DNA of 64,000 bases from Gordonia westfalica (GTDB lineage: Bacteria > Actinomycetota > Actinomycetes > Mycobacteriales > Mycobacteriaceae), in contig NZ_FNLM01000034.1 of assembly GCF_900105725.1 (NCBI RefSeq), positions 2,170,001-2,234,000 of the forward strand, in the 5' to 3' direction. The notes below the pieces were generated by a model that did no database searches, was not told the origin of the DNA, and saw only the letters and a program-made list of their open reading frames with translations. The position numbers and the translations under genes were made by a program. Shown piece after piece: positions 33,741 through 43,610 of this stretch; within the stretch, counting starts at the first letter, position 1; the number at the start of each line of letters is the position of its first letter.

Positions 33741-34655
33741 CTACCCGGTCCTGCCCACCGTGCGGAATCCGATGTTGCTCGCGGTCGAGTTCGGGGTGTT
33801 CGACGACCGTGCGGCCACCCGGTAGCGGTTGCAGTACGAGTCGTGGCAGAGATGACTGCCGCCGCGCAGCACGCGCCGGGTGCCGCGTGGCGGTCCCGTC
33901 GGGTCGAGGGTTTCGGAGGTCCGGTAGTACCGCGCGCTGAATCTATCGGCGCACCACTCCCACACGTTGCCCACACACTGGTAGAGGCCGTACCCGTTGG
34001 GCTCGAAGGCCCGCACGTCGACGGTGCCGACCGCACCCTCCGGGCGGTCCGGGAACTCACCGCGGAAGATGTTGCAGCGCGGCTCTTCCGGACCGGGGTG
34101 GGTGTCACCCCAGGGATAGCGGGCGCCGTGCAGGCCACCGCGCGCGGCGTGTTCCCACTCCGCCTCGCTGGGCAACGCTCTCCCCACCCAGTCGCAGTAC
34201 GCGAGCGCGTCGTCGTGGCTGACATGCACGACGGGATGGGAGTCCTTGCCGGTCAGGTCGCTGCCGGGTCCCGAGGGTTGTCGCCACGACGCCCCGGGTA
34301 TCGCGAGCCACCACGGGGTTTGGGGGAGGGACTCCCCGGGAGCGGTCGCGTAGCCGTGAAACACCGCGGAGATGCCGGCTCGTTCGGCATCGGAGACGTA
34401 GCCGGTCGTCTCGACGAAAGCCGCGAAGGCGGCGTTCGTGACGGCCGTGACGTCCACCGAGAACGCATCGAGTTCGACGTCGTGGACCGGGACCTCGCCG
34501 TCGGTGCGGTAACCCTCGTCATGCGCGTCGCCCATCGAGAACCGGCCGGCGGGGACGTCGACTGTCTCGATCCCGTGTGTTCCCTCCCCGGCCGGACGCC
34601 GACTCCCGGGGTCAGTGACCGAGGGTTCTGGACCAGGCGGGTGGCAGCAACTCAC
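33741..34655 (-). CDS. Formylglycine-generating enzyme (sulfatase-modifying factor)
   Basis: 304 residues from the GTG at 34655, which overlaps the cysNC stop by 2 bases (GTGA). It has the FGE fold from VDVPAGRFSMGDAHDEGY through PVVHVSHDDALAYCDWVGRALPSEAEWEHAARGG and GNVWEWCADRFS. The two catalytic Cu(I)-binding cysteines are in GGSHLCHDSYCNRYRVAARS, and the substrate-groove segment SSNTPNSTASNIGFR follows. This closely matches the Streptomyces enzyme. It oxidises the Cys of sulfatase CxPxR motifs to formylglycine. A type I sulfatase with such a motif is encoded 4 kb upstream on the same strand. Confidence 0.94.
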   Translation of the reverse strand: MSCCHPPGPEPSVTDPGSRRPAGEGTHGIETVDVPAGRFSMGDAHDEGYRTDGEVPVHDVELDAFSVDVTAVTNAAFAAFVETTGYVSDAERAGISAVFHGYATAPGESLPQTPWWLAIPGASWRQPSGPGSDLTGKDSHPVVHVSHDDALAYCDWVGRALPSEAEWEHAARGGLHGARYPWGDTHPGPEEPRCNIFRGEFPDRPEGAVGTVDVRAFEPNGYGLYQCVGNVWEWCADRFSARYYRTSETLDPTGPPRGTRRVLRGGSHLCHDSYCNRYRVAARSSNTPNSTASNIGFRTVGRTG

Positions 34656-36571
34656 CCCTCCATGATGCCCCGGTCCATCAGCGCACCGAGGACCAGCGAG
34701 GCGAGCCGGTCGATGTCGGCTCCGGTGGTGTCGAAGCGCAGATCCGGGTGTTCCGGGCTCTCGTACGGTGCGTCGATGCCGGTCAGACCGCGCAGTTCGC
34801 CGCGCCGGGCGCGTTCGTACAGGCCCTTGGGATCGCGACGCTCGCATTCGCTGACCGGGGTCGAGACGTGCACCTCGATGAACTCGAGGTCGGCGGCGCG
34901 GTGCAGTTCCCGCGCGATCTCGCGGTCCGAACGCAGCGGGGACACCATCGACGCGATGGAGATGACCCCGGCGTCGGCGAACAGACGCGCCACATGGCCC
35001 ACGCGGCGGATGTTCTCGGCACGGTCGCCGGCCGAGAAGCCGAGATCGTCGGAGATGCCGTGCCGGATGTTGTCGCCGTCGAGGAGATAGGCGACGCGCC
35101 CGCGGCTGACGATGGCGCGTTCGAGCGCCACCGCCACGGTGGACTTGCCGGACGCCGGTAAACCGGTGAGCCACACCGTCGCTCCGCGCTGACCGGTGTG
35201 CGCCCAGCGTTCGGCGCGCGCCAGCGAATTCGGATGCCACTTGATGTCGTTGCGCGTCGCTTTTCCGGGGATGACCTCGCGCGGTTCGAGGATCGTCCCG
35301 GCGCCGACGGTGTCGTTGGACGCCTCGTCGATGAGGATGAAGGCACCGGTGTCGCGGTTGTCCTGGTACGGGTCGGCCGGCACCACCGACGACGTCCGGA
35401 GCGTGATGGTGCCGATGTCGTTGAGCGCCAACTCACTCGGCCCGACGTGCTCGATCAGCGTGTCGGGATCGAGCCGTCGTTCGAGGGACCCGACGGTGGC
35501 TCGCACCGTCGACGGTCCGTGCTTGAGCGCGACGCGGTCACCCGCACGCAGTGGTGTCGACGACAGCCAGCACACGTGGGCGTCGATCTCGCGGGCCAGT
35601 ACCGGTACGTGTGCGCCCTCGGCGCCGCTGACGACGATGTCGCCGCGCCCGATGTCGATGTCGTCGGCGATCTGGATCGCGACCGAGAGCGGCGCGACCG
35701 CAACCTTTCTCGACTCGTCGAGGGTGTCGAGGGAGGTGACCGTGGACCGACTGCCCGAGGGCAGCACGACGATCTCGTCACCCACCTGCAGCGTTCCCGA
35801 CGCCAACCGGCCGGTGTAGGTGCGCCGGTGTCTCTCACTCGGACGCGAGACCCATTGGATCGGCAGCCGCAGTTCCTCGGCAACCGGTGCGGGCGCGTGT
35901 AATTCGACGTTCTCGAGATAATCGAGGAGCGTGGGCCCCTCGTACCAGGGCGTACTCGGGGAACGATGTACGACGTTGTCGCCGTGCTTCGCGGCGACCG
36001 GGACCGCGATGATCTCGTCGATGCCGAGTTGCACGGCGAGTTCGGCCAGGTCGGCGCGGATCTCGTCGAACCGGTGCTGCGAGAAGTCGACCAGGTCGAT
36101 CTTGTTGACCGCCGCGACCACATGCGGGACACCGACCAGGGTCGCGATGCGCGCGTGGCGTCGGGTCTGGCGGAGCAGGCCGTGCCGGGCGTCGACGAGC
36201 AGCACCGCGACGTGGGCGTTCGACGCCCCGGTGAACATGTTGCGGGTGTAGCGCTCGTGGCCGGGAGTGTCGGCGAGGACGTAACTGCGTGTGGGCGTGG
36301 AGAAGAACCGGTACGCGACGTCGATCGTGATGCCCTGCTCCCGCTCGGCACGCAGCCCGTCGGAGAGCGCGGCGAGGTCGACGTCACCGTCACCGTCGGT
36401 GACCGCCTCGAGGTGGTCGGTGGGCAGGCTGCCGGTGTCGTGCAGGATGCGGCCGATCAGCGTCGACTTGCCGTCGTCGACGCTGCCCGCGGTCGCGATG
36501 CGGAGGAACTGCCTTGTCGCGGTAGCGGCTCCGGGACCGGTATCGACCGATTGCGGAGAGGTGATGGTCAT
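34652..36571 (-). CDS. cysNC: Bifunctional sulfate adenylyltransferase subunit 1 / APS kinase (CysN-CysC fusion)
   Basis: 639 residues; the ATG at 36571 overlaps the cysD stop by one base. The N-terminal GTPase domain has GSVDDGKSTLIGRILHD, DTPGHERYTRNM and NKIDLVD, followed by beta-barrel domains to about residue 435. The C-terminal APS kinase (about 445-639) shows GLPASGKSTVAVALERA, DGDNIRHGISDDLGFS and the FIEVHVSTPVSECERRDPKGLYERARRG segment. With CysD it makes adenylyl sulfate and then PAPS, the universal sulfuryl donor. The fusion is the mycobacterial form. Confidence 0.96.
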   Translation of the reverse strand: MTITSPQSVDTGPGAATATRQFLRIATAGSVDDGKSTLIGRILHDTGSLPTDHLEAVTDGDGDVDLAALSDGLRAEREQGITIDVAYRFFSTPTRSYVLADTPGHERYTRNMFTGASNAHVAVLLVDARHGLLRQTRRHARIATLVGVPHVVAAVNKIDLVDFSQHRFDEIRADLAELAVQLGIDEIIAVPVAAKHGDNVVHRSPSTPWYEGPTLLDYLENVELHAPAPVAEELRLPIQWVSRPSERHRRTYTGRLASGTLQVGDEIVVLPSGSRSTVTSLDTLDESRKVAVAPLSVAIQIADDIDIGRGDIVVSGAEGAHVPVLAREIDAHVCWLSSTPLRAGDRVALKHGPSTVRATVGSLERRLDPDTLIEHVGPSELALNDIGTITLRTSSVVPADPYQDNRDTGAFILIDEASNDTVGAGTILEPREVIPGKATRNDIKWHPNSLARAERWAHTGQRGATVWLTGLPASGKSTVAVALERAIVSRGRVAYLLDGDNIRHGISDDLGFSAGDRAENIRRVGHVARLFADAGVISIASMVSPLRSDREIARELHRAADLEFIEVHVSTPVSECERRDPKGLYERARRGELRGLTGIDAPYESPEHPDLRFDTTGADIDRLASLVLGALMDRGIMEG

Positions 36572-37518
36572 CAGAAATACCCTTCGCGCTTGCGGTCTTC
36601 CATGGCGGCGCTCGACGTGCGGTCGTCGGCGCGGGTCTCACCGCGTTCGGAGACCGTCGACTCGCTGATCTCGGCGATGATCTCGGTGATCGTGGTCGCC
36701 CGCGAGCGGACCGCGCCGGTGATCGTCAGATCCCCGACCGTGCGGTAGCGCACCCACTCGGTGGTGACCTCTTCGCCGTCGCGGGGCTGCGAGAACTCCG
36801 AGACCGAGAGCAGGATGCCGTCCCGCTCGAAAACCTCACGCTCACCGGCGAAGTAGATCGGGGGCAGTTCGAGGTTCTCGAGTTCGATGTAGCGCCAGAT
36901 GTCGGTCTCGGTCCAGTTCGACAGCGGGAACACGCGCACGGACTCACCGCGTCGGATGCGCCCGTTGTACAACGACCACGGCTCGGGACGCTGCGCGCGC
37001 GGGTCCCACTGGCCGAACTCGTCCCGGAAGCTGAAGATGCGCTCCTTCGCGCGGGCCCGTTCCTCGTCGCGCCGGGCACCGCCGAAAGCGGCGTCGAATC
37101 CGCCCTTCTCGAGCGCGTCGAGCAGCGTGCGGGTCTGCAGCCGGTTGCGCGAACCCGACGGGTCCGTGGACTCGGCGACGCGACCGGTGTCGATGGACTC
37201 CTGGACCGACGCCACGATCAGTTCGATGCCGTCCGGGTTGTCGGCACCGGGCGCCACCCGGCGATCACGGAACTCGATGACCTCGGAGAAGTTGTGTCCG
37301 GTGTCGACGTGCATGATCGGGAAGGGCAACGGCGCCGGCCGGAATGCCTTCTCCGCCAGACGGAGGAGGACGATCGAGTCCTTGCCGCCGGAGAACAGCA
37401 GTACCGGGCGCTCGAGCTCGGCCACCACCTCGCGGATGATGTGCACCGACTCGGCTTCCAGAACTCTGATCGCGGTGACGTGATCGATGTCGTCGGTTGT
37501 CTTCTCGGCTGTCGTCAC
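36571..37518 (-). CDS. cysD: Sulfate adenylyltransferase subunit 2
   Basis: 315 residues from the GTG at 37518, overlapping the sulfotransferase stop by 4 bp (GTGA). The PP-loop ATPase motif [20 protein letters not shown] is near residue 40, followed by [43 protein letters not shown] and [15 protein letters not shown]. CysD forms the catalytic ATP sulfurylase with the GTPase CysN. It is embedded in a run of four overlapping genes: sulfotransferase, cysD, cysNC and FGE. Confidence 0.96.
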
Positions 37519-38333
37519 AGCGGATATCCGTTCCGTTCGGCGTCTTCTCGGTAACGCTGGGCCCATTCCTTGGACCGCGAGTCGGACTGCGGCTTCAACG
37601 GTGGCGGCGGCGCCAGGGCCGGGTCCTGGCCGATCTTCTCGAGAACCCGTGCGGCCGCCTTGGTGGGATCGTTCACCAGGTCGCGGAACCCGATGTCGAG
37701 CGGCTCGATGCCCTCCTCGGCAAACCAGTTGCGCCACTGGCGTTCCTGTTCGAGAAGGATGCCGGCGAGATGCGCGATCCCCGCGGCGTGGTACACCGCG
37801 ACGTCGTCCCCGCTCCCCTCGTCCCCGTCGGATCCGTCGTTGCGCCACACGCGGGTCTGCACCGCGCGCCACATCGAAACCGCCTGCGGCACCACGTCAT
37901 CGCGGTAGACGTGGACGTAGAGCGGGTCGGCGCCGTCGAAGATCCACCGGATCGCGGTTCGCAACGATCCCGAACCCGCGCGGCTTCGCGCGATCAGCAG
38001 TGGCGTCTGGTTCCACATGAGCTTCCCGCCCCACACCCCGTTGTCGCTGCTCCCGGCGTCGAGGACGTCGGCGCGCCAGGTGTCGGCGTCGCGCACGTCG
38101 ACGGTGCCGGGGTCGATCGGGTCGAGGAGTTCGAGGATCGTCGGGTCGGTGACACCGGCGAACCACTCACGCGGTTGCGGCGCCTGCGACGAGGAGGCGA
38201 AGTACTGGAAGAACTCCTCCGGCGTGCCCGCGACACCGGTCGCCGACAGCGACTCGACGAGGAGGGTGCTGCCGCTGCGCTGGCTCGCGCACACCAGATA
38301 GTTCGACGGCCCCACCGCGGGCGTTGCTGACAT
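37515..38333 (-). CDS. Stf0-family PAPS-dependent sulfotransferase
   Basis: 272 residues from the ATG at 38333 ([10 protein letters not shown]). The 5'-PSB loop is [19 protein letters not shown] near residue 12. Other Stf0-family segments are [42 protein letters not shown] with the conserved Arg/Asp pair, and the C-terminal [20 protein letters not shown]. The mycobacterial homologue sulfates trehalose on the way to sulfolipid-1; here the acceptor may be trehalose or another glycolipid. It leads the PAPS operon, so donor synthesis and use are co-expressed. Confidence 0.92.
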
Positions 38334-38355
38334 GAACGATGAGTCTAACGATCCG

Positions 38356-38380
38356 AAAACCCCTCGCAACCTGGGGTTTT
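38356..38380 (-). promoter_or_regulatory. Hairpin in the leader of the sulfotransferase-PAPS operon
   Basis: AAAACCCC and GGGGTTTT (8-bp stem, 9-base loop) lie 23-47 bases upstream of the sulfotransferase ATG. On the minus strand the structure ends in a T run like an intrinsic terminator. If transcription starts upstream of it, it is a candidate attenuator; otherwise it is a second terminator for the sulfatase gene. Confidence 0.45.
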
Positions 38381-38392
38381 AGGCGCACGGCG

Positions 38393-38421
38393 GCGAAAAA
38401 CCTTGACACCTGGTGGGTGTC
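38393..38421 (-). terminator. Terminator after the sulfatase gene
   Basis: Read on the minus strand, GACACC and GGTGTC (38405-38421) make a 6-bp stem with a 5-base loop, followed by AAGG and five T residues. It lies about 33 bases after the sulfatase stop, suggesting the sulfatase and the sulfotransferase operon are separate transcripts. Confidence 0.6.
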
Positions 38422-38453
38422 GTGAGTGTCCGGTGACCGCCGCGGTTCTCGGT

Positions 38454-39863
38454 TCAGCGGGTTCCCGAGGTGATGTCGCCGGCCAGCTCGCGTCGCGACC
38501 CCTGCGGACGGCGGGACGGCAACGCCTCCTCCCGCGGTTCCACCTGCGCCGCCTTGGCGTGGAAGGCGTCCATGAAGCGCTGGGCGATGGCGGTGCCGGT
38601 GGCCTCGTCGGGTAGCTCGTCCCCCGTCTCGGCGCGCCACGCGGCGAGTGTCGCGGCGAAGGCGGCACGCACCTCTGCATACGACGGGTCCTCGGCGACA
38701 TTGTTGCGCTCATACGGATCGGAACGCAGGTCGTAGAGTTCGACCCTCGGCCGGTCCTGTTGTATCGCTTCGGAATCCAGCGAGCGCGCGGACAGGCTGT
38801 CGGCGATGTCGAGCGGCAACAGCAGTGCCGGCCGGGCCGCGAGGTTCTCGATGTAGCTGAAGTCCTTGGTGCGCACGGCCCGGATCGGGTCGAAGGCGTC
38901 GTGATAGGTCTTCTCGGTGAACACCCGGGTCCGCACGGCCGCGGCCGGGTCCCCGGCAGGCCTCGAGGTGGGCGGTTCGACGAGTGCCGACGCGTGGGAG
39001 TCGCCGTCCACGTCGTCGGGGATCTCGACCCCGAGCAGGTCCAGCAGGGTCGGGGTCAGGTCGACACCGGAGAACAGGTCGTCGTAGACCTGCGGTTCGA
39101 TGCCGCGCCGGGTCGGCGGCCGCACGATCAGCGCGACGCCGGTCCCTTCGGCGTAGAGGGTCGACTTGGCCCGCGGGAACGCCAGTCCGTGGTCGGTGAT
39201 GAAGACGATCCACGTCGAGGAGTCCAGCCCGAGCTCGGCGACGGTGTCGAGCAGCCGGCCGACCGCGGCGTCGGCCTTGGTGATGGACCCGTGCAGACCC
39301 GCGAGGTCGTCACGGACGTCGTCGGTGTCGGGCAGGAATCCCGGGACGGCGATGCCGCTGGTGTCGGACGGTTTGTATTCGTCCGCCGGGTACGGCCGAT
39401 GGGTCTCGAAGAAGCCTGCGGTCAGGAAAAAGGGCCGATCCTCCCCGGCGTGGCGTCGAAGCCAGTCCCGGGACTGTTCCACCACGTAGTCGCAGCGCGA
39501 GTCCGAGACGTCCACCGAGTCGAAGCCGAGGCGCTGTGGGTCCGCGCTCTCGTGCTGCATCCCGAACAGCGCCGACCGGTACCCCGCGTCGGAGAGAAGC
39601 GACGGCAGCGTCCGCACATCCGAGAAGTACTCGAACCCGTGGTGGGCCAGCCCGACGAGTCCGTTGCGGTGGGGGTAGCGGCCGGTGAAGAGCGATCCGC
39701 GCGCCGGCGAGCACAGCGGGGCGGTCGAGTGGGCGTCGGCGAATCGGATGCCGTCCGCGGCCAGTTGATCGAGGGTCGGCGATTCGACGCCGTCCGCGCC
39801 GTAACACGTCAGGTGGCGCCCCAGGTCGTGCCAGTGGATCAGGATGACGTTCTCGCGTGCCAT
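38454..39863 (-). CDS. Type I sulfatase (formylglycine-dependent)
   Basis: 469 residues from the ATG at 39863. The alkaline-phosphatase fold begins NVILIHWHDLGRHLTCYG. The active-site signature LCSPARGSLFTGR places the formylglycine-precursor cysteine at residue 51 (C-x-P-x-R). Metal and substrate residues follow in FFETHRPYP and VFITDHGLAFPRAKSTLYAEG. There is no signal peptide, so it probably hydrolyses imported sulfate esters in the cytoplasm. FGE encoded downstream would activate it. It is divergent from efeUOB, with 254 bases between. Confidence 0.94.
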   Translation of the reverse strand: MARENVILIHWHDLGRHLTCYGADGVESPTLDQLAADGIRFADAHSTAPLCSPARGSLFTGRYPHRNGLVGLAHHGFEYFSDVRTLPSLLSDAGYRSALFGMQHESADPQRLGFDSVDVSDSRCDYVVEQSRDWLRRHAGEDRPFFLTAGFFETHRPYPADEYKPSDTSGIAVPGFLPDTDDVRDDLAGLHGSITKADAAVGRLLDTVAELGLDSSTWIVFITDHGLAFPRAKSTLYAEGTGVALIVRPPTRRGIEPQVYDDLFSGVDLTPTLLDLLGVEIPDDVDGDSHASALVEPPTSRPAGDPAAAVRTRVFTEKTYHDAFDPIRAVRTKDFSYIENLAARPALLLPLDIADSLSARSLDSEAIQQDRPRVELYDLRSDPYERNNVAEDPSYAEVRAAFAATLAAWRAETGDELPDEATGTAIAQRFMDAFHAKAAQVEPREEALPSRRPQGSRRELAGDITSGTR

Positions 39864-40060
39864 TCCCCCATGATGACGCAGCTCGACGGACGCGCCGGCG
39901 CCGCAGCTCTACCCGATTCCGACATACCGCCCACGGCACCGGCGGACGAATTGAAATCACTGTGCGCCGAACAACGCTGATCACGCCCCCGAGGCCCGAA
40001 TCCGATCCGCGAGTGGGGAGATGTGCCCTATGCGATCGCCCCTCGGCGGTCTACCGTCGC

Positions 40061-40117: not shown

Positions 40118-41083
40118 GTGATCGATCACATATCGGCACTCGCCGCGAGCGGAGTTCACGTGCTGGCCGCCGACGGGCCGTCGATCGGGACCCAGATGTT
40201 CGGGAGCGCCCTCATCGGTCTCCGCGAAGGACTCGAAACCGGGATCGTGGTCATGGTCCTGGTCGCCTTCGTCGTCAAGACCGACCGCCGCGACGCCCTG
40301 AAATGGATCTGGGCGGGCGTGGGCGCAGCGGTCGCCATGACCCTCGCGGTGTTCCTCGTGATCCACTTCGGCACGTCGACGATGACGCCGCTGGCGGCCG
40401 AGACCATTGCCGGCGTGGCCTCGCTGGTGGCGGTCGCGATCGTGACGTTCATGGTGCTCTGGATGAGCGAGGCCGCGTCCCACATCTCCGCCGACCTCAA
40501 GAGCGGGATGTCGAAGGCCCTCCTCGCAGGCGGTGCGTCGGTGTTGGGTCTGGCGTTTCTCGCGGTCGGCCGCGAGGGATTCGAGACCGCGCTGCTGATG
40601 GTCGGCTATGCCGAGAGTGTGTCGGGCGGCCTGTGGCCGCTGATCGGACTCGTGATCGGCATCCTGGCCGCGATCGCGCTGACGGTGCTGATCTACCGCG
40701 GGGCGATCCGGATGAACCTCTCGGTGTTCTTCACCTATACAGGCCTGTTCCTGATCGTCGTGGCCGCCGGAATCCTCACCTACGGAATCCGCGCGCTGCA
40801 GACGATCGGTTGGCTGCCCGGCCTCGACAACATCGCCTTCGACGTCTCCGGTACCTACGACGCCTCGTCCTGGTACGGCACCGTCCTCGGCGGCATCTTC
40901 AACGTGCGCCCGGATCCGACGGTCCTGCAGGTGATCGCCTGGATGGTCTACGTGGTCGTCGTGACCACGATCTTCTTCCGTCGACAGCGCGCCGGCCATC
41001 GTGCGATCGCCGCCCGGAAGAGCGCAACCGCCGACGAGAGCTCCGCGCCCGCGGAGCCCACCCCCGAAAGGAATGCTCAGTGA
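40118..41083 (+). CDS. efeU: High-affinity iron permease EfeU (FTR1 family)
   Basis: 321 residues from the GTG at 40118 (GAGGAG 11 bases upstream). Seven hydrophobic segments are predicted. The two iron-coordinating REGLE-type motifs are present: GLREGLETGIV near residue 35 and VGREGFETALL near 155. The third helix set includes LWMSEAASHISADLKSG. EfeU carries ferric iron, delivered by EfeO and EfeB, across the membrane. It is the first gene of a three-gene operon with 4-bp overlaps throughout. Confidence 0.94.
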   Translation: MIDHISALAASGVHVLAADGPSIGTQMFGSALIGLREGLETGIVVMVLVAFVVKTDRRDALKWIWAGVGAAVAMTLAVFLVIHFGTSTMTPLAAETIAGVASLVAVAIVTFMVLWMSEAASHISADLKSGMSKALLAGGASVLGLAFLAVGREGFETALLMVGYAESVSGGLWPLIGLVIGILAAIALTVLIYRGAIRMNLSVFFTYTGLFLIVVAAGILTYGIRALQTIGWLPGLDNIAFDVSGTYDASSWYGTVLGGIFNVRPDPTVLQVIAWMVYVVVVTTIFFRRQRAGHRAIAARKSATADESSAPAEPTPERNAQ

Positions 41084-42288
41084 ACCGTAGAACCGTGGTG
41101 GCCGCCGGTGCGGCCGCGGTGGTGATCGCCCCCATCTTGTTGGCCGGCTGCACCGAGAAGTCCGACGCCGAGAATGCGATCGCCGTGACCTCGACCGCCG
41201 ACGCCTGCGATCTCGCGACCACCGACGCGACGACCGGCAACGTCGACTTCGCGATCACCAACTCCGGCAACAAGGTCACCGAGTTCTACGTCTACGGCAA
41301 CAACAACCGAGTCCTCGGCGAGGTCGAGAACATCGGTCCCGGACTGTCGGGGAACCTGACCGTCGAGATCGTCGAGCCGGGCACCTACACCGTGGCGTGC
41401 AAGCCGGGCATGGTCGGCACCGGTATCCGCACCGAGCTCACGGTCGGCGGTGAACGCAAGGAGAAGGCCGACGTCCCCGCCGACGTCACGGCCGCCAAGG
41501 CGCAGTACCTCGACTATGTGCGCAACCAGCTGAACACCCTGCACGCACAGACGACGTCCTTCGTCGACAACATCAAGAAGGGCGATCTCGACGCCGCGCG
41601 TGCGCAGTTCGGTCTCACCCGCACGCCGTACGAGCGGATCGAACCCGTCGCCGAGTCGTTCCCCGACCTCGACCCGGCCATCGACATGCGGTGGGACGAC
41701 ACCGAGGACGGCACCCAGCCGTTCACCGGCTTCCACCGCCTCGAGCGGTACCTGTGGCCGCCGCAGCCCGCCGAGATCGGCGACGCACCCGGCCAGATCA
41801 CGCCGTCGGATGCCGCGAACGCCAAGGAGACCGACAATCCGCAGGCCATCGCCGAGATCGCCGACGGCCTGCTCGCCAACGTGACCAGGCTCCGCGACGA
41901 GGTCAACAAGCCCGACTTCGAGTTCGAGACGCTGTCGTTCGTCAAGGGCCCGCAGGCTCTCATCGACGAGGTCGCCGCCACCAAGGTCGACGGTGAAGAG
42001 GACCGGTACTCCCACACCGACCTGTGGGACATCGCGGCCAACCTCGACGGGTCGGAAACCGCGATCGCGACGATGCAGCCGATCATCGCCGCCAAGAACC
42101 AGGCGCTGATGGACAAGATCACCGCGCAGTTCACGACGGCGCGCGACGCGGTGAACTCCTACCGCGACGGTGACGGCTACGTGTCCTACACCGAGGTCAC
42201 GCCCGAACAGCGTAAGGAACTGTCGAATCAGATCGACGCGCTGTCGGCCACGCTGTCCCAGGTACCGGGAATCGTGTTGCAGCAATGA
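41080..42288 (+). CDS. efeO: Iron-uptake lipoprotein EfeO with cupredoxin and M75 domains
   Basis: 402 residues; the GTG at 41080 overlaps the efeU stop, with AAAGGA upstream. The lipobox ILLAGC puts the lipidated Cys at residue 24. A cupredoxin-like domain (about 35-130) ends CKPGMVGTGI. The imelysin/M75 domain (about 150-400) contains the metal-binding HxxE in GFHRLERYLW, and NPQAIAEIADGLLANV. EfeO binds iron outside the membrane and passes it to EfeU. Confidence 0.93.
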   Translation: MNRRTVVAAGAAAVVIAPILLAGCTEKSDAENAIAVTSTADACDLATTDATTGNVDFAITNSGNKVTEFYVYGNNNRVLGEVENIGPGLSGNLTVEIVEPGTYTVACKPGMVGTGIRTELTVGGERKEKADVPADVTAAKAQYLDYVRNQLNTLHAQTTSFVDNIKKGDLDAARAQFGLTRTPYERIEPVAESFPDLDPAIDMRWDDTEDGTQPFTGFHRLERYLWPPQPAEIGDAPGQITPSDAANAKETDNPQAIAEIADGLLANVTRLRDEVNKPDFEFETLSFVKGPQALIDEVAATKVDGEEDRYSHTDLWDIAANLDGSETAIATMQPIIAAKNQALMDKITAQFTTARDAVNSYRDGDGYVSYTEVTPEQRKELSNQIDALSATLSQVPGIVLQQ

Positions 42289-43610
42289 GTGATCCGGTCC
42301 CCCGCCCCGACGACGCACAGCCCGCCGAACCCGAGAGGCGTACGACGCGACGTGGTCTGTCACGTCGTGCGATCCTCGGCGGGACCGGCGCCGGTCTGCT
42401 CGTCGCCGCGGGCGGGGTGGCCGTCGGCCGTGCCACGACCCCGGCACCGGCCGCCGACCATGTCGTCGAGTTCCGGGGTCCACGCCAGGCCGGGATCGTC
42501 ACCGCCGCGCAGGATCGTCTGCATTTCGCGAGTTTCGACGTGGTCACCGACAACCGGGACGAACTCGTCTCCGTGCTGCGCCGATGGACCGAGGCGGCCG
42601 AACGCATGACCCGCGGCGAGGAGACCGAGCCCGACGGCGCCACCGGTCTCGGCGAGTACACACCGCCCGCCGACACCGGAGAAGCGTTGGGGCTGAGCGC
42701 TGCTCATCTCACCCTCACGATCGGCTTCGGTCCGGGACTGTTCGGCCCCAGCGCGTCGGCGCCCGACCGTCCCGACCGGTTCGGTCTCGCCGACCGTCGA
42801 CCGCCGGCGCTCGTCGACCTGCCGATGTTCGCCGCGGAGAAGATCGACCCCGCACGGTCATACGGCGACATCTGCGTGCAGGCCTGCGCCGACGACCCGC
42901 AGGTCGCGGTGCACGCCATCCGAAATCTCGCCCGAATGGCGGTGGGCGTCATGGCGGTTCGCTGGTCGCAGCTGGGGTTCGGCCGGACGTCGTCGACGAC
43001 GCAGTCCCAGGACACACCGCGAAACCTGTTCGGATTCAAGGACGGAACGGCGAACCTGCGCGCCGAGGACACCGACCTCCTCGACCGTTGGGTGTGGGTG
43101 CGCCCCGAGGACAACCCGGCGGCCGCCCAGTGGATGACCGGCGGCACCTATCTCGTCGCCCGCCGCATCCGGATGGACATCGAACCGTGGGACCGGGCCA
43201 ACCTGTTCGAGCAGGAACACATCATCGGCCGCACCAAGCGCGCCGGCGCCCCACTGGGCAAGTCCGGCGAGTTCGATGACCCCGACTTCATGATCACCTC
43301 GGGTGGTACACCGATGATCCCGAAGAACTCGCATGTGCGGCTGGCACATCCGGACAACCTCGGCGGGGTGCGGATCCTGCGCCGCGGCTACAACTTCACC
43401 GACGGCTCCGACGGGTTCGGGCACCTCGACGCCGGACTGTTCTTCATCGCCTTCAACCGGGACACCGGCAAACAGTTCGTCCCGATGCAGCAGGTCCTGT
43501 CCCGTCAGGACGCCATGACCGAGTACCTGATCCCCAACGGCTCGGCGAACTTCGCGATCCCGCCGGGCCTGGAGCCCGGCGAATGGTGGGGGCAGCGGCT
43601 CTTCGAGTGA
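42285..43610 (+). CDS. efeB: DyP-type heme peroxidase EfeB, Tat-exported
   Basis: 441 residues; ATGA overlap with efeO. The twin-arginine signal is GLSRRAILGGTGAGLLVAAGG, so the folded hemoprotein is exported. The DyP signature GFKDGTANL is near residue 248, the proximal heme histidine is likely in NSHVRLAHPDN, and RRGYNFTDGSDGFGHLDAGLFFIAF is the C-terminal family motif. In Efe systems this enzyme oxidises ferrous iron, or releases iron from heme, for EfeO/EfeU. The stop converges with mazG eight bases away. Confidence 0.94.
   Translation: MSDPVPRPDDAQPAEPERRTTRRGLSRRAILGGTGAGLLVAAGGVAVGRATTPAPAADHVVEFRGPRQAGIVTAAQDRLHFASFDVVTDNRDELVSVLRRWTEAAERMTRGEETEPDGATGLGEYTPPADTGEALGLSAAHLTLTIGFGPGLFGPSASAPDRPDRFGLADRRPPALVDLPMFAAEKIDPARSYGDICVQACADDPQVAVHAIRNLARMAVGVMAVRWSQLGFGRTSSTTQSQDTPRNLFGFKDGTANLRAEDTDLLDRWVWVRPEDNPAAAQWMTGGTYLVARRIRMDIEPWDRANLFEQEHIIGRTKRAGAPLGKSGEFDDPDFMITSGGTPMIPKNSHVRLAHPDNLGGVRILRRGYNFTDGSDGFGHLDAGLFFIAFNRDTGKQFVPMQQVLSRQDAMTEYLIPNGSANFAIPPGLEPGEWWGQRLFE

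What the first reader, a model, noticed from the sequence alone, without database searches (positions are those of the whole stretch)
33741..39863. PAPS synthesis, sulfotransferase, sulfatase and sulfatase-activating enzyme encoded together
Four genes with 1-4-bp overlaps run Stf0 sulfotransferase, cysD, cysNC, FGE, and a CxPxR sulfatase lies just upstream on the same strand. FGE is co-translated with PAPS-making enzymes rather than with the sulfatase. One short segment could therefore make, transfer and remove sulfate esters. Co-translation of FGE with cysNC suggests FGE abundance is set by sulfur status. A cell storing sulfate as an ester (for example sulfated trehalose or glycolipid) and mobilising it later would need exactly this set.
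Basis: partly seen in the sequence, partly recalled or inferred. Interest (0 to 1): 0.7.

Follow-up and report, generated by a model that had tools for sequence, protein, structure and literature searches.

The report
Paired genes that add and remove sulfate
A Gordonia bacterium carries, side by side, the enzymes to attach sulfate to a sugar (probably trehalose), an enzyme that can take sulfate off again, and the helper that switches that second enzyme on; relatives tend to have both the adding and the removing gene or neither, which suggests they work on the same molecule.

Summary
In a Gordonia genome Stf0 (trehalose 2-sulfotransferase), cysD, cysNC and FGE overlap by 4, 1 and 4 bp, with a CSPAR sulfatase 120 bp upstream, the genome's only Pfam sulfatase match. 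The conserved core is sulfatase-Stf0-cysD-cysNC: in 36 Stf0-bearing Gordonia genomes the sulfatase is directly upstream in 32, cysD-cysNC follow in 33, FGE joins in 11. In 151 family genomes sulfatase and Stf0 occur together in 53, sulfatase alone in 1, Stf0 alone in 0. Operon FGEs form one clade in Gordonia, Nocardia and Tsukamurella. A published Rhodococcus proteome lists the sulfatase, CysD and Stf0 of the matching cluster as raised in sulfate-free culture (PMC8557817). Best reading: a sulfur-responsive make-and-unmake module for trehalose 2-sulfate. The sulfatase's substrate is inferred, not shown. Simple storage fits poorly, because makers and remover rise together. The sulfatase probably has its own promoter. 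Papers of 2011 and 2013 call the substrate of AtsG, its likely M. tuberculosis counterpart, unknown, so this is a testable assignment.

The parts
38454..39863 (-). Sulfatase of the type I (formylglycine) family, 469 aa, CSPAR, probably cytosolic; AtsG-like
39870..39875 (-). Putative -10 (CATCAT), 6 nt before the sulfatase ATG, for a leaderless transcript of its own
   Evidence: Pattern [CT]AT[CG]ATG{1,2}N3-6[AG]TG before the sulfatase in 29 of 33 Gordonia loci; function inferred
38342..38375 (-). Conserved element before Stf0: CCCAGG, -35-like TTGCGA (38364-38369), 16-bp spacer, -10 TAGACT (38342-38347), then 8 nt to the ATG
   Evidence: TTGC-N15-19-TANNNT-N6-9-start codon in 28 of 35 Gordonia loci, mean 0.07 in mononucleotide shuffles; element without mismatch once in the genome; strict sigma-70 scan found nothing
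37515..38333 (-). Stf0, trehalose 2-sulfotransferase, 272 aa
   Evidence: NF047724 435.9 bits, cut-off 400; matches solved Stf0 1tex over residues 9-272, 297 bits
36571..37518 (-). cysD, sulfate adenylyltransferase small subunit, GTG start, 4-bp overlap with Stf0
   Evidence: NF003587 and TIGR02039 over cut-off; junction
34652..36571 (-). [quoted passage not shown]
   Evidence: NF004035 781.8 bits, cut-off 715; APS kinase domain PF01583 residues 462-613
33741..34655 (-). FGE, formylglycine-generating enzyme, GTG start, 4-bp overlap with cysNC
   Evidence: PF03781 245 bits; 340.8 bits to solved FGE 6muj; CHDSYC cysteine pair kept; the genome's only other PF03781 match is a weaker one in two pieces at 3.37 Mb

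Best explanation
A cytosolic module that makes and unmakes one sulfate ester, most likely trehalose 2-sulfate. CysD and CysNC turn sulfate and ATP into APS and PAPS (family knowledge). Stf0 moves the sulfuryl group to trehalose (family knowledge; equivalog cut-off met here). The neighbouring AtsG-like sulfatase, after FGE has converted Cys51 to formylglycine, hydrolyses that ester or a cytosolic product of it, returning sulfate and trehalose (inferred). In this lineage FGE was captured by the sulfotransferase operon, so the enzyme that ripens the remover is encoded, and probably translated, with the makers (gene geometry shown, co-translation inferred). The Stf0 operon and the sulfatase gene probably have separate leaderless promoters (inferred from conservation). 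The set probably answers to sulfur supply (reported by others for the matching Rhodococcus cluster, not shown here).
For: Stf0 meets the trehalose 2-sulfotransferase model. Sulfatase and Stf0 share a near-identical distribution: 53 both, 1 sulfatase only, 0 Stf0 only, 97 neither of 151 family genomes; the same 13 of 31 genera hold each. In 3 of the 53 the two lie 0.7-3.3 Mb apart on one contig and in 10 on different contigs. Within the genus: 35 both, 4 sulfatase only, 1 Stf0 only, 19 neither of 59; the Stf0-only genome ends its contig just past Stf0. All 4 Stf0-less Gordonia sulfatases have lost the C-terminal tail (370-398 residues after the active Cys), while 34 of 34 complete ones from Stf0-bearing genomes have 408 or more (window), as if constraint relaxes without Stf0. 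Linkage survives rearrangement: of 80 named loci the sulfatase is upstream same strand in 35, downstream opposite strand in 18, downstream same strand in 1, not in the fetched stretch in 26. In 17 of 59 Gordonia genomes this sulfatase is the only PF00884 match, and 16 of those 17 have an FGE. FGE is found in 43 of 49 genomes with a PF00884 match and in 0 of 10 without. In G005 Stf0, cysD, cysNC and FGE are missing as a block from this place. CSP[AS]R kept in 91 of 91 sulfatase matches, duplicate genomes included. Rhodococcus qingshengii peg167-170 (sulfatase, CysN2C, CysD2, Stf0) have the order of locus L191; sulfatase, CysD2 and Stf0 were raised or seen only in the sulfate-free culture (PMC8557817 Table 1 passage and section 7).
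Against: No assay or model links this sulfatase to trehalose 2-sulfate. The nearest solved folds act on N-sulfoglucosamine and carrageenan, and no NCBIfam equivalog cut-off is met for it. Fisher p-values (2.5e-40) treat related genomes as independent. Different contigs in draft genomes do not prove distance; only the 3 single-contig cases do. 26 of 80 named loci, 22 of them mycobacterial, show no sulfatase in the fetched stretch, some of them short. Four Gordonia genomes keep a (tail-less) sulfatase without Stf0. Two Gordonia genomes, G013 and G050, have the pair without cysD-cysNC in the fetched stretch. AtsG of M. tuberculosis has been reported in culture filtrate and membrane fractions (PMC4734655 passage), against a purely cytosolic role. 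A second cysD-cysNC exists in the genome. FGE is not next to the operon in 25 of 36 genomes, and one (G046) has the pair with no FGE match. The Rhodococcus sulfatase peg167 was matched by gene order, not by sequence.
Confidence: 0.6

Rival explanations
1. The sulfatase acts on a different ester (scavenged or endogenous), and its sulfate is fed straight to the neighbouring CysD-CysNC-Stf0. The pair is a supply chain, not a cycle.
For: Raised in sulfate-free Rhodococcus culture and labelled sulfur acquisition by those authors (PMC8557817); nearest folds act on other sugars; AtsG is reported to have arylsulfatase activity (PMC3141025 passage).
Against: A scavenger should be useful without Stf0, yet sulfatase alone is found in 1 of 151 family genomes. 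No ester transporter among the genes scanned in and beside the block. No signal peptide by eye.
Confidence: 0.25
2. Store and mobilise: sulfate is banked as an ester in plenty and released in want.
For: Gene content allows it; separate promoters for sulfatase and Stf0 (inferred) would allow opposite control.
Against: In Rhodococcus the sulfotransferase, CysD2 and the sulfatase are all raised in sulfate-free culture. The released sulfate must be activated again to be used (pathway knowledge).
Confidence: 0.12
3. Trehalose 2-sulfate is a committed lipid precursor, as in the sulfolipid pathway of M. tuberculosis, and the sulfatase trims overflow or recycles lipid breakdown products.
For: Stf0 initiates sulfolipid-1 synthesis in mycobacteria (title of Mougous 2004 in a reference list); Rhodococcus opacus S8 is annotated with two papA2 copies (PMC9229178 passage).
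Against: No acyltransferase or polyketide synthase among the nine proteins scanned in and beside the block. PapA_C gave no match in the genome, but the control rang nowhere, so that is uninformative.
Confidence: 0.1
4. Accident of position: unrelated sulfur genes that happen to lie together.
For: Some mycobacteria keep Stf0 with no sulfatase in the fetched stretch.
Against: Linkage in three arrangements across several genera and co-occurrence where the genes are far apart.
Confidence: 0.03

Closest known systems
Rhodococcus qingshengii IGTS8 peg167-peg170 (sulfatase, CysN2C, CysD2, Stf0; PMC8557817)
   Same: Same four genes with consecutive numbers; the locus of another strain, L191 (IEGM 1359), has that order, with Stf0 60%, CysD 80%, CysNC 75% and sulfatase 61% identical to the window
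   Different: Sulfatase on the opposite strand at the other end; no FGE match in the fetched locus. The paper lists the sulfatase under sulfur acquisition and, in the passages and the one section I read, does not pair it with Stf0. The IGTS8 proteins themselves were not compared
Stf0 (Rv0295c) and AtsG (Rv0296c) of Mycobacterium tuberculosis
   Same: Rv0295c makes trehalose 2-sulfate (PMC8006519 passage); AtsG (Rv0296c, PMC4734655) has the next locus number and the same strand letter; 12 of 34 mycobacterial loci fetched show the same adjacent pair
   Different: FGE (Rv0712) and cysDNC lie elsewhere (recalled); Stf0 feeds sulfolipid-1; AtsG substrate stated as unknown in 2011 and 2013 (PMC3141025 and PMC3675115 passages). 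The M. tuberculosis sequences were not compared here
Actinobacterial FGE, solved entries 6muj and 2q17 (Streptomyces coelicolor, recalled)
   Same: 340.8 and 340.4 bits over residues 9-300; LCHDSYCNRYR identical
   Different: Encoded in a PAPS/sulfotransferase operon; the 21 operon FGEs are a clade apart from 21 lone FGEs of other Gordonia
Sulfamidase (4mhx, 4miv; human, recalled) and lambda-carrageenan S1_8 sulfatases (9bb9, 9bep)
   Different: 23-31% identity; H-D where a D-D pair is usual (recalled): [HDE]D[LI]G read as WHDLG in 90 of 91 matched loci and HDLG in 1

Membership tests
Trehalose 2-sulfotransferase Stf0 | Scores over the curated equivalog cut-off | tested here: met
   NF047724 435.9 against 400 bits
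Trehalose 2-sulfotransferase Stf0 | PAPS-binding motifs kept (SQRSGSTL; R, S and W of the 3'-phosphate motif named in PMC10638397) | tested here: met
   SQRSGSTL in the window; R144, S153 and W155, the counterparts of R143, S152 and W154, invariant in 15 aligned Stf0
Trehalose 2-sulfotransferase Stf0 | Sulfates trehalose at O2 | not testable with these tools
   Needs an assay
Type I formylglycine sulfatase | CxPxR signature | tested here: met
   CSPAR residues 51-55; CSP[AS]R in 91 of 91 matched loci, duplicate genomes included
Type I formylglycine sulfatase | Sulfatase fold | tested here: met
Type I formylglycine sulfatase | Canonical metal ligands (DD near the N-terminus, D-N/H later; recalled) | tested here: inconclusive
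   H12-D13 in place of DD, D224-H225; invariant in 35 aligned sequences; no metal modelled
Named sulfatase equivalogs (arylsulfatase PRK13759, choline-sulfatase) | Curated cut-off | tested here: not met
   142.5 against 481 and 113.8 against 433.45 bits
AtsG orthologue of M. tuberculosis | Reciprocal best match with Rv0296c | not tested
   Rv0296c sequence not fetched; inferred from mycobacterial loci with the same pair
Formylglycine-generating enzyme | FGE domain and the cysteine pair of the copper site (site recalled) | tested here: met
   PF03781 245 bits; C....C in 26 of 26 operon FGE rows, duplicate genomes included
CysD/CysNC sulfate-activating complex | Both subunits, with a fused APS kinase, over cut-off | tested here: met
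   NF003587, NF004035, PF01583

The most novel reading that the evidence does not exclude
AtsG-type sulfatases are the dedicated erasers of trehalose 2-sulfate. That ester is then a reversible, sulfur-regulated pool throughout Stf0-bearing Mycobacteriales rather than only a sulfolipid precursor. In some Gordonia, Tsukamurella and Nocardia the eraser's activator, FGE, is wired to the writer's operon.
Probability: 0.5. Interest if true: 0.75.

Novelty: new variant of a known kind. Interest (0 to 1): 0.6.

Why it matters
The natural substrate of AtsG was stated as unknown in papers of 2011 and 2013 (PMC3141025, PMC3675115 passages). A near-perfect shared distribution with Stf0, kept even where the genes lie far apart, names a candidate substrate that one enzyme assay can test in Gordonia or Rhodococcus. 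If right, trehalose sulfation is reversible and tied to sulfur supply, which would change how Stf0 is read in mycobacteria. The operon also gives a natural case of FGE with a single apparent client, useful for formylglycine protein tagging.

Tried and rejected
Terminator in the 120-bp gap: one weak stem-loop of 6 pairs (4 terminator-like sites in the region, 2.1 in shuffles). The AAAACCCC...GGGGTTTT arms in the window overlap the -35-like hexamer and are not kept as a perfect stem in relatives, so they were read as promoter or operator. Strict sigma-70 scan: 0 promoter-like sites; the promoter claims rest on conservation alone. Regulon for the Stf0 element: 1 exact match and 2 places with two mismatches in the genome, control 0, so none seen. 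PapA_C: no match, control rang nowhere, uninformative. Plasmid search for FGE: 243 records; the best, Tsukamurella tyrosinosolvens record 'plasmid 23', carries the whole cassette, but pgi and other housekeeping genes beside it suggest a chromosomal piece with a plasmid label, so I make no claim of mobility. I first took the G005 sulfatase for a stop-broken gene; one search shows an open frame of 449 aa with a changed, shorter end, and the report says so. The operon-FGE label needs 3 changes on the Stf0 tree: one gain with later losses, or transfer; not resolved, and the root is a midpoint.

Limits of the counts: E-value limits were 1e-20 (genus), 1e-80 (sulfatase, family) and 1e-40 (Stf0, family). 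Searches do not list all genomes without a match; the counts use the stated totals. The 80 named loci are the best 80 of 322. Genus sample, family sample and named loci overlap. FGE was surveyed in the genus only. Of the papers I saw search listings and passages, plus one outline with abstract and one section (PMC8557817); no whole text. That I found no paper pairing this sulfatase with Stf0 rests on searches in one open-access library.
Full report
What is there. On the minus strand run a sulfatase, a 120-bp gap, then stf0, cysD, cysNC and FGE with overlaps of 4, 1 and 4 bp. Family models support the names. Stf0 passes the trehalose 2-sulfotransferase equivalog cut-off and aligns with solved Stf0 over residues 9-272. 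FGE aligns with solved FGEs at up to 340.8 bits and keeps the CHDSYC pair. The sulfatase has no leader before its first catalytic strand, so it probably works in the cytosol (read from the sequence; no predictor was run).

One client, one activator. The genome has one PF00884 match, one full FGE (a second, weaker PF03781 match in two pieces at 3.37 Mb is probably an EgtB-like protein, by inference) and one Stf0 match. Four PF01507 matches are a probable cysH with cysD and cysN at 1.226 Mb, a second cysD with cysNC at 2.97 Mb, and this cysD; a Sulfotransfer_3 gene lies about 6.6 kb from the second pair. Across 59 genus genomes FGE is found in 43 of 49 with a PF00884 match and in 0 of 10 without. 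In 17 of 59 the sulfatase described here is the only PF00884 match, and 16 of those 17 carry an FGE. In this genome the client of FGE is therefore very probably the neighbour sulfatase.

The conserved unit. I fetched up to 20 kb around Stf0 in all 35 other Stf0-bearing genus genomes. With the window, 32 of 36 have the sulfatase directly upstream on the same strand (one cut by a contig end), 2 have 1.0-1.5 kb between, 1 ends at the contig edge, 1 has it on another contig. cysD and cysNC follow Stf0 in 33 of 36; cysNC is matched in two overlapping pieces in G028 and G006. FGE closes the operon in 10 and follows Stf0 directly in G021, which has no cysD-cysNC there. In G005 nothing of stf0, cysD, cysNC or FGE lies between the sulfatase and lpqU.

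Relaxed sulfatases. Four genus genomes have the sulfatase without Stf0: G005, G025, G042, G055. All four proteins end early, 370-398 residues after the active cysteine, and lack the tail (mostly PSRRPxGxxRxL-like) that ends the others. In Stf0-bearing genomes 34 of 34 complete sulfatases have 408 or more (window; G006 and G028 incomplete).

Beyond the genus. In the 80 best named loci of 322, the sulfatase lies upstream on the same strand in 35 (in 2 of these the best match is the N-terminal part of a split match), downstream on the opposite strand in 18 (Rhodococcus 8 of 8, Tsukamurella 7 of 7, Nocardia 3 of 3), downstream on the same strand in 1 Williamsia, and is not in the fetched stretch in 26, of which 22 are mycobacterial. 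CysD follows Stf0 in 53 of 80. FGE follows cysNC in 15 of 80: Gordonia 5 of 20, Tsukamurella 7 of 7, Nocardia 3 of 3. In a family sample of 151 genomes, sulfatase and Stf0 occur together in 53, sulfatase alone in 1 (G055), Stf0 alone in none; the same 13 genera of 31 hold each, read off the rows. Of the 53, 17 have the two within 0.4 kb, 23 at 0.4-12 kb, 3 at 0.7-3.3 Mb on one contig, and 10 on different contigs. Co-occurrence without linkage is the strongest evidence that the two proteins share a task. The p-value (2.5e-40) ignores descent and should not be taken literally.

Where the operon FGE came from. The 21 different operon FGEs form one clade (support 100/99) apart from 21 lone FGEs of Gordonia. 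Their nearest lone relatives in that tree are three FGEs, two of which (G001, G028) lie beside another sulfatase. On the Stf0 tree the FGE label needs three changes. One capture followed by losses, or transfer of the cassette, would both fit.

Control. Upstream of Stf0, TTGC, 15-19 bases, TANNNT and 6-9 nt to a start codon are found in 28 of 35 Gordonia loci (mean 0.07 in mononucleotide shuffles; the loci are related, so this shows conservation, not independence). The sulfatase has a CATCAT- or CATGAT-type -10 candidate in 29 of 33. A strict sigma-70 scan finds no site. I infer leaderless promoters for both. The Stf0 element occurs once without mismatch in the genome. Published proteomics of Rhodococcus qingshengii IGTS8 lists a probable sulfatase (peg167), CysD2 (peg169) and Stf0 (peg170) as raised in the dibenzothiophene, sulfate-free culture; CysD2 was exclusive to it in all phases and Stf0 exclusive to it in early log and stationary phase; CysN2C (peg168) was detected but not quantified; the assimilatory CysD1N1 did not differ (PMC8557817, Table 1 as a passage and section 7). 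The gene order matches the R. qingshengii locus L191 fetched here; peg167 itself was not compared by sequence. This supports control by sulfur supply. It speaks against simple banking, since makers and remover are raised together. Dibenzothiophene releases sulfite, so the trigger could be sulfite rather than lack of sulfate.

Substrate. No result here identifies it. The model of the sulfatase (pLDDT 84.1) is closest to sulfamidase and carrageenan S1_8 sulfatases, enzymes of sulfated sugars, which is compatible with a sulfated disaccharide but not specific. The family carries H-D where D-D is usual. In M. tuberculosis the sulfatase with the neighbouring locus number, AtsG, was described as lacking a known native substrate (PMC3141025, PMC3675115 passages).

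Verdict. The FGE placement is a lineage-specific addition to a sulfatase-Stf0 partnership, and storage is not the best-supported role.

Noticed in passing
L243-L247 (G017, G024, G037, G045, G058): Five Gordonia genomes carry a sulfatase in an open frame of about 790-862 aa with an intact TPVCSPAR motif but gave no FGE match at 1e-20. Either another activator exists, FGE was missed, or the enzyme works unmodified.
   Followed up: partly
L155-L158 (G005, G042, G025, G055): The four Gordonia sulfatases without Stf0 in the genome all lack the C-terminal tail that 34 of 34 complete ones from Stf0-bearing genomes have.
   Followed up: partly
L248 5318-12076 (NZ_LR134465.1): The Stf0-cysD-cysNC-FGE cassette with its convergent sulfatase sits on a 413-kb record called plasmid 23 in Tsukamurella tyrosinosolvens; pgi beside it suggests the record may really be a chromosomal piece.
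   Followed up: partly
L100 5719-8573 and 15205-16356: A second cysD-cysNC pair in the same genome, beside an IclR regulator and acyl-CoA genes, with a Sulfotransfer_3 gene about 6.6 kb away: a possible second sulfation module.
   Followed up: no
window 40118-43610: efeU-efeO-efeB iron uptake operon, divergent from the sulfatase; in several other Gordonia it lies on the other side of the cassette, so this site between lpqU and mazG is often rearranged.
   Followed up: no
L147, L149, L146 (G004, G046, G033): Sulfatase open frames of 582-604 aa; in G004 and G046 the match breaks into two pieces within one frame, which suggests an inserted stretch between the catalytic and C-terminal parts.
   Followed up: no
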